From Candidatus Nanohaloarchaea archaeon (GTDB taxonomy: Archaea > Nanohalarchaeota > Nanosalinia > Nanosalinales > Nanosalinaceae), in the NCBI GenBank assembly GCA_014297435.1, contig JACOQA010000004.1, forward strand, positions 76,180-140,179: a stretch of DNA of 64,000 bases. Direction: 5' to 3'. Shown here in pieces: positions 61,483 through 62,122 of the stretch; within the stretch, counting starts at the first letter, position 1; each line of letters opens with the position of its first letter. The notes under the pieces were generated by a model, which ran no database searches, was not told the DNA's origin, and saw only the letters and a program-made list of their open reading frames with translations. The position numbers were made by a program, and so were the translations under genes.

Positions 61483-61493
61483 CACTTAAATAC
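61483..61493 (-). promoter_or_regulatory. TATA box for the 60788-61462 gene
   Basis: Minus-strand GTATTTAAGTG is centred 26 nt before the ATG. Confidence 0.55.
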
Positions 61494-61552: not shown

Positions 61553-62122
61553 ATGATACCTTTCGAAAAAGAGGCTAGCTTGACCGCAAGCGAAGAATAC
61601 GCCCAGGAAATACTCGAATCAAACTGGAAACATGTAGTAAGGACCACCCCAGGAATGCTGGAGGATCTTGAGCAAAAGTATCCGAAGCTTTGCGACCTGA
61701 TAAGCCAGAATATCTTGGAGGATGCAGGAAAGCGTATAGACAACATTTTCAGGACAGGCGTACCCGACTTCCTCGTGTTCAGCGACAAAGGCGATTACAA
61801 GTTCGTAGAAGTGAAGAGTGGAGAAGACGGCTTAAGGCATACACAGCTCGACTGGCTCCGTGAATTCGAAGGGATAAAAGCCGAGATCTGGTTTACCGAA
61901 AAACGAGAAGTTGAGAAACAACTGGATACAGATAATATTTCGGCTTACACCTTCCAGGATCGCAAAGGCGAAAGCTCTTCCAGCCATATTACAAGCGAGA
62001 AAGATTCTAACCTCTTTATTGAGCTGCCAAAGACTTTGGCATCTATAATCGGTCTTTCCAAGGAAGATAGTTTCGATTGGCGTTTGAAGAGCAAGGATGA
62101 ACTTATTCTTGACTCTAAATAA
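61553..62122 (+). CDS. VRR-NUC-type nuclease fused to an AbrB-like domain
   Basis: 189 residues. A PD-(D/E)XK nuclease core of VRR-NUC type is visible: GVPDFLVFSDKGDYKFVEVKSGEDGLRHTQLDWL (Asp in VPD, Glu and Lys in EVK, Gln after). The C-terminal ~40 residues (LFIELPKTLASIIGLSKEDS, then FDWRLKSKDELIL) match the swapped-hairpin AbrB/SpoVT DNA-binding fold, so the nuclease may be targeted by sequence. ATG at 61553 follows no strong TATA box. Its end overlaps pitA by 8 nt, convergently. Confidence 0.75.
   Translation: MIPFEKEASLTASEEYAQEILESNWKHVVRTTPGMLEDLEQKYPKLCDLISQNILEDAGKRIDNIFRTGVPDFLVFSDKGDYKFVEVKSGEDGLRHTQLDWLREFEGIKAEIWFTEKREVEKQLDTDNISAYTFQDRKGESSSSHITSEKDSNLFIELPKTLASIIGLSKEDSFDWRLKSKDELILDSK

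What the first reader, a model, noticed from the sequence alone, without database searches (positions are those of the whole stretch)
61553..62122. VRR-NUC nuclease fused to an AbrB-like DNA-binding domain
VRR-NUC cores usually occur alone or with helicase-type partners. Here a swapped-hairpin AbrB/SpoVT fold at the end could give sequence targeting, as in a small restriction or repair system. No methylase lies beside it.
Basis: partly seen in the sequence, partly recalled or inferred. Interest (0 to 1): 0.6.

Follow-up and report, generated by a model that had tools for sequence, protein, structure and literature searches.

The report
Nanohaloarchaeal VRR-nuclease with AbrB-like tail
A small DNA-cutting enzyme of salt-loving nano-archaea carries an AbrB/MazE-type pairing domain at its end; the combination is real and conserved in one archaeal family, but the tail looks more like a dimerising handle than a sequence-reading one.

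Summary
The ORF at 61553-62122 (+) encodes a 189-aa protein with a VRR-NUC core (Pfam 4.8e-9; E14, PD72, ExK86/88 and Q98 invariant) and a C-terminal ββαββ unit (residues 145-189). That unit matches AbrB/MazE by Pfam (3 of 13 orthologues), by profile-profile comparison (96.7%, 3.3e-10; controls negative) and by predicted fold. Thirteen full-length orthologues exist, all in one nanohaloarchaeal family (13 of 19 genomes). None was found in 9 other genomes of the order, in a GTDB scan, or in phages, plasmids and viral contigs.

The 'sequence targeting, restriction' reading is not supported. The tail is acidic (mean net -4.6, against +0.9 for stand-alone AbrB proteins of the phylum), has no conserved basic residue at AbrB/MazE DNA-contact positions, and has no methylase or conserved partner beside it. 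The core has a two-helix β1-β2 segment that aligns with FAN1, where an insertion at that place blocks VRR-Nuc dimerisation. I favour an accessory branched-DNA nuclease whose two FAN1-like units are paired by the AbrB-type tail. Dimerisation and substrate are inferred, not shown. It does not replace Hjc: an Hjc-like protein coexists wherever it occurs.

New domain combination of known parts; moderate interest.

The parts
61553..62122 (+). whole gene, 189 aa plus stop: VRR-NUC nuclease with C-terminal AbrB/MazE-like domain
   Evidence: ORF; Pfam VRR_NUC 4.8e-9; 13 full-length orthologues
61586..61624 (+). first helix of the nuclease (residues 12-24) with invariant E14, the first acidic residue of the E-PD-ExK site
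   Evidence: E14 invariant in 13/13; helix in AF2 model; role by comparison with PMC4103454
61646..61744 (+). segment between beta1 and beta2 (residues 32-64), two predicted helices 35-42 and 44-58; FAN1-like insertion
   Evidence: DSSP of AF2 model (repeated for an orthologue); FAN1 aligns 99-110 residues over model residues 8-126, small bacterial/phage VRR-Nuc only 72-78
61745..61897 (+). catalytic core (residues 65-115): P71-D72, E86-x-K88, Q98, all invariant
   Evidence: invariant columns; Pfam VRR_NUC 64-106; mean pairwise identity 0.68, the highest of all segments
61898..61984 (+). linker (residues 116-144), variable in length and sequence, low confidence in the model
   Evidence: lengths 27-33, mean identity 0.32; pLDDT about 30 at residues 121-140
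61985..62119 (+). AbrB/MazE-like swapped-hairpin half (residues 145-189), strand-strand-helix-strand-strand
   Evidence: Pfam PF04014 in 3/13 members and in the G010 orthologue in a six-frame search (E 7.6e-4); hhalign 96.7%, E 3.3e-10; MazE 1mvf and SpoVT 2w1t aligned to 145-189 and 142-189

Best explanation
An accessory structure-selective DNA endonuclease of nanohaloarchaea. Shown: a VRR-Nuc catalytic core with an intact E-PD-ExK...Q site, a helical segment between beta1 and beta2 as in FAN1, a variable linker, and a C-terminal half-unit of the AbrB/MazE swapped-hairpin fold. Inferred: the beta1-beta2 helices cover the face by which small VRR-Nuc proteins dimerise, so the nuclease domain itself is monomeric and FAN1-like; the AbrB-type tails of two chains interlock and hold two nuclease domains on flexible linkers, giving a two-headed enzyme for branched DNA (flaps, forks or junctions) in repair. 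The tail is a pairing device first; any DNA contact by it would be weak or non-specific.
For: Catalytic residues E14, D72, E86, K88, Q98 invariant in 13/13; these are the metal-site and Gln residues of VRR-Nuc structures (PMC4103454). Best sequence and fold matches are FAN1 (profile E 2e-5; Foldseek ranks 1-6), and FAN1 aligns over nearly all of residues 8-118 including the two inserted helices. In FAN1 an insertion between beta1 and beta2 blocks the VRR-Nuc dimer face and FAN1 cuts flaps, not Holliday junctions. AbrB N-domains form dimers (PMC4022651) and MazE acts as a dimer. The tail's invariant residues are P159, L162, W176, L184, L186 (hydrophobic or structural), while it is acidic and has 1.8 K/R in its DNA-facing arm against 4.9 in stand-alone AbrB proteins. 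Neighbours are unrelated from genome to genome; among them are an Mre11/Rad50-like pair adjacent in G002 and about 2.3 kb away in G003, and a SprT-like gene in G014.
Against: No dimer was modelled; single-chain AF2 confidence in the tail is moderate (pLDDT about 50-64 in the window protein, 58-75 in an orthologue). The repair-gene neighbours are few and on different sides. FAN1 insertion homology is by position and fold alignment at Z 6-7 only, below the level the tool calls safe. The substrate is untested. Halophile proteins are acidic overall, so acidity alone does not exclude DNA contact.
Confidence: 0.5

Rival explanations
1. Sequence-targeted nuclease: the AbrB dimer reads a DNA site and places the nuclease, as a small restriction-like or replicon-directed enzyme.
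For: AbrB, SpoVT and MazE domains bind DNA as dimers; fold confirmed. Partly conserved basic positions 179 and 181 lie in the second hairpin. Present in 13/19 genomes, absent in single-contig genomes G006 and G008, as for defence genes.
Against: No basic residue conserved at positions matching AbrB R8, R15, R23/R24 or MazE P-2 Arg; net charge -4.6. No methylase among neighbours scanned. VRR-Nuc enzymes studied are structure-selective, not sequence-selective.
Confidence: 0.18
2. Holliday-junction resolvase: two VRR-Nuc domains, dimerised through the core as in psNUC/stNUC and stabilised by the tail, cut four-way junctions symmetrically.
For: Small VRR-Nuc proteins are dimeric junction resolvases (PMC4103454); Hjc and 4qbn appear among fold matches. 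A two-fold dimer suits junctions.
Against: The core has the FAN1-type helical segment that in FAN1 blocks the dimer face. An Hjc-like protein is conserved in 26/28 genomes of the phylum, including all 13 with the fusion, so no resolvase gap needs filling.
Confidence: 0.2
3. The tail is an antitoxin-like or autoregulatory domain: it represses its own gene, or pairs with stand-alone AbrB/MazE proteins of the cell to restrain the nuclease.
For: Closest stand-alone relatives are small AbrB-like proteins of the same phylum, for example G009:C1:313899-314027 matched by the family profile at 2e-4.
Against: No toxin or antitoxin partner recurs next to the gene; tail lacks basic operator-binding residues.
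Confidence: 0.08

Closest known systems
FAN1 VRR-Nuc domain (Fanconi-associated nuclease 1; bacterial paFAN1)
   Same: E-PD-ExK...Q site; best sequence and fold matches; helices between beta1 and beta2
   Different: FAN1 is 530-1000 aa with SAP and TPR-type parts before the nuclease and a longer stretch between the catalytic residues; no AbrB tail
Small VRR-Nuc Holliday-junction enzymes psNUC, stNUC, saNUC (4qbl, 4qbn, 4qbo)
   Same: same catalytic fold and site; 4qbn_A Z 7.0 over 78 residues
   Different: 92-121 aa, no C-terminal domain, dimerise through the core; lack the two-helix segment seen here
AbrB/MazE/SpoVT swapped-hairpin domains (PF04014; 1mvf, 1ub4, 2w1t, 1yfb)
   Same: strand-strand-helix-strand-strand half-unit, conserved Pro before the helix
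   Different: here at the C-terminus of a nuclease, acidic, no conserved DNA-contact arginines; sub-threshold Pfam score
Archaeal VRR-NUC proteins with other partners: family-B DNA polymerase fusions (L106, L107), 288-aa type (L090), 488-aa type (L096)
   Same: VRR-NUC catalytic core
   Different: none shows an AbrB-like tail in the Pfam scan

Membership tests
VRR-NUC (PF08774) | profile score above the curated cut-off | tested here: met
   36.7 bits against 23.8; 13/13 orthologues match
VRR-NUC (PF08774) | catalytic E, PD, ExK and the family Gln | tested here: met
   E14, P71-D72, E86-x-K88, Q98 invariant in 13/13
VRR-NUC (PF08774) | metal-dependent nuclease activity | not testable with these tools
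   needs an assay
AbrB/MazE/SpoVT swapped-hairpin fold | sequence profile match | tested here: met
   hhalign 96.7%, E 3.3e-10 with controls; PF04014 matches in 3/13 members, best 0.0022, below the gathering score
AbrB/MazE/SpoVT swapped-hairpin fold | strand-strand-helix-strand-strand half-unit | tested here: met
   AF2 secondary structure in two members; MazE 1mvf_D aligned over 44/44 residues, rmsd 2.5
AbrB/MazE/SpoVT swapped-hairpin fold | interlocked dimer | not testable with these tools
   only single chains could be modelled
AbrB-type DNA-binding protein | conserved basic residues on the DNA-facing arms | tested here: not met
   no conserved K/R at AbrB R8, R15, R23/R24 or MazE P-2 equivalents; arm K/R 1.8 against 4.9
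FAN1 | helical insertion between beta1 and beta2 of VRR-Nuc | tested here: inconclusive
   two helices at the right place and aligned with FAN1, but Z only 6-7 and no homology shown for the helices by sequence
FAN1 | SAP and TPR-like domains | tested here: not met
   the whole protein is 189 aa
Restriction-modification system | adjacent methyltransferase | tested here: not met
   20 nearby genes at ten loci scanned, none a methylase; window neighbours likewise

The most novel reading that the evidence does not exclude
A new class of two-headed branched-DNA nuclease in which a FAN1-type monomeric VRR-Nuc domain has regained dimerisation through an AbrB/MazE-type tail, so that a transcription-factor fold serves as a nuclease dimer clamp.
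Probability: 0.4. Interest if true: 0.55.

Novelty: new variant of a known kind. Interest (0 to 1): 0.38.

Why it matters
FAN1 and the small VRR-Nuc enzymes differ in substrate because one is monomeric and the other dimeric. A protein that seems to keep the FAN1-type block yet carries a separate dimer module would be a natural test of that rule. It would also show an AbrB/MazE fold used as a pairing handle rather than for gene control, in a host-dependent DPANN lineage whose repair enzymes are little studied.

Tried and rejected
Chance resemblance of the tail to AbrB: rejected by shuffles and the N-terminal control. Tail as part of the nuclease fold or absent in relatives: rejected. Assembly artefact or single-genome fusion: rejected, 13 genomes, several of them a single contig. 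Replacement of the archaeal Hjc: not supported. Weak Hjc hits proved to be one conserved 159-aa Hjc-like family in 26/28 genomes, coexisting with the fusion in all 13. Operon or partner gene: none conserved; location is shared only between close relatives. Mobile or viral origin: no match in viral contigs or phages; one VRR-only match in a Vibrio plasmid. Same fusion elsewhere: none of the VRR-NUC proteins from 394 archaeal genomes outside this family that I scanned with Pfam showed an AbrB tail; the GTDB scan used family-specific peptides, so remote bacterial fusions are not excluded. Secretin_N_2 match (0.033): dismissed, below cut-off and in one member only. NCBIfam: no family. Papers joining VRR-NUC and AbrB: only two phage or prophage surveys with one passing mention of each.

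Full report
What is there. The window lies in a genome of about 1.0 Mb in 15 contigs. Its named relatives are nanohaloarchaea (Nanosalina, Nanosalinarum, Nanohaloarchaea SG9 and M3_22). The ORF at 61553-62122 (+) has an ATG start and 189 codons. It is flanked upstream by a divergent 224-aa ORF without a Pfam match and downstream by a convergent PHO4-type phosphate transporter gene, whose stop overlaps it by 8 bases.

The nuclease half. Pfam VRR_NUC matches at 4.8e-9, above the cut-off. In the alignment of 13 orthologues E14, P71, D72, E86, K88 and Q98 are invariant. These are the residues of the VRR-Nuc active site, E-PD-ExK, and the family's conserved Gln that bonds the catalytic Lys (PMC4103454). 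The sequence and fold matches are led by FAN1. In the AlphaFold2 models of two members, two helices (35-42 and 44-58 in the window protein) lie between beta1 and beta2. FAN1 chains align over 99-110 residues of the nuclease half, the small bacterial and phage VRR-Nuc proteins over only 72-78, which fits the two helices having a FAN1 counterpart. The Z values are 6-7, so this is a lead and not a proof. Pennell and colleagues report that FAN1's helical insertion between beta1 and beta2 covers the face by which small VRR-Nuc proteins dimerise, and that FAN1 cuts flaps but not Holliday junctions.

The tail. Residues 145-189 have fixed length (44-45) and mean pairwise identity 0.41, after a linker of 27-33 residues with identity 0.32. 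Three of 13 members match Pfam MazE_antitoxin (best 0.0022), and a six-frame search with PF04014 finds the tail of the G010 orthologue at 7.6e-4. Profile-profile comparison with 14 AbrB-like proteins from the same phylum gives 96.7% and 3.3e-10; 60 column shuffles and the nuclease half give nothing. A stand-alone small AbrB-like protein in G009 is picked up by the tail part of the family profile at 2e-4. The template-free model has strand-strand-helix-strand-strand order. MazE and SpoVT align to residues 145-189 and 142-189, and MazE, AbrB and C68 appear in the Foldseek list.

Does the tail read DNA? AbrB's contacts were proposed to be R8, R15, R23 and R24 (PMC4022651); MazE has Arg two residues before the conserved Pro (from my own knowledge of its sequence). 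In the family the matching positions are Ala, Ser, Glu, Gln and the like. The tail's mean net charge is -4.6 against +0.9 for the stand-alone proteins, and the arm carries 1.8 K/R against 4.9. Its invariant residues are Pro159, Leu162, Trp176, Leu184 and Leu186. This speaks for a structural, pairing role. Two caveats: salt-in proteins are acidic overall (full-length net -8 to -22), and basic positions 179 and 181 are partly conserved.

Distribution and neighbours. Orthologues were found in 13 of 19 genomes of the same family, in none of 9 others of the order, and only in nanohaloarchaea in the GTDB scan. Two single-contig genomes lack it (G006, G008), so it is not essential. VRR-NUC is rare in archaea: 25 of 394 genomes, 13 of them with this fusion. 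The neighbours differ from locus to locus; only close relatives share location. Pfam scans of 20 nearby genes show no methylase. An Mre11/Rad50-like pair lies adjacent in G002 and about 2.3 kb away in G003, and a SprT-like gene lies beside it in G014: a hint of repair, no more. An Hjc-like family is present in 26/28 genomes including all carriers, so the fusion does not fill a missing resolvase.

Verdict. The fusion is real, conserved, and to my knowledge not described; the literature held here gives no paper on it. Sequence targeting and restriction are not supported. The most likely reading is an accessory branched-DNA nuclease with a FAN1-type core and an AbrB-type dimer clamp. The architecture is shown; the dimer, the substrate and the pathway are inferred.

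Noticed in passing
L106 (G332:C5) and L107 (G348:C40): Archaeal family-B DNA polymerase fused at its C-terminus to VRR-NUC (DNA_pol_B 3e-11 and 1.5e-16 plus VRR_NUC 1.7e-6 and 8e-5; the second VRR match is just under the cut-off).
   Followed up: partly
L090, L093, L094 (three genomes of another nanohaloarchaeal family): A conserved run of ArsR-type HTH gene, MIP18/FeS_assembly_P gene and a 288-294-aa VRR-NUC protein.
   Followed up: partly
G000:C9:43378-43854 and equivalents (alignment A3): A 159-aa Hjc-like protein conserved in 26/28 genomes of the phylum that scores below the Pfam and NCBIfam Hjc cut-offs in the member tested.
   Followed up: partly
window 62115-62122: The stop ends of the fusion gene and of the convergent PHO4-type transporter gene overlap by 8 bases.
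   Followed up: no
window 61485-61492: TATA-like CTTAAATA between the fusion gene and the divergent 224-aa ORF; its spacing fits a leaderless start of the divergent ORF better than the fusion gene (sequence).
   Followed up: no
L017 5254-5832 (G015): Gene next to the fusion weakly resembles the SLATT_4 membrane effector family (1.4e-5, just below cut-off).
   Followed up: no
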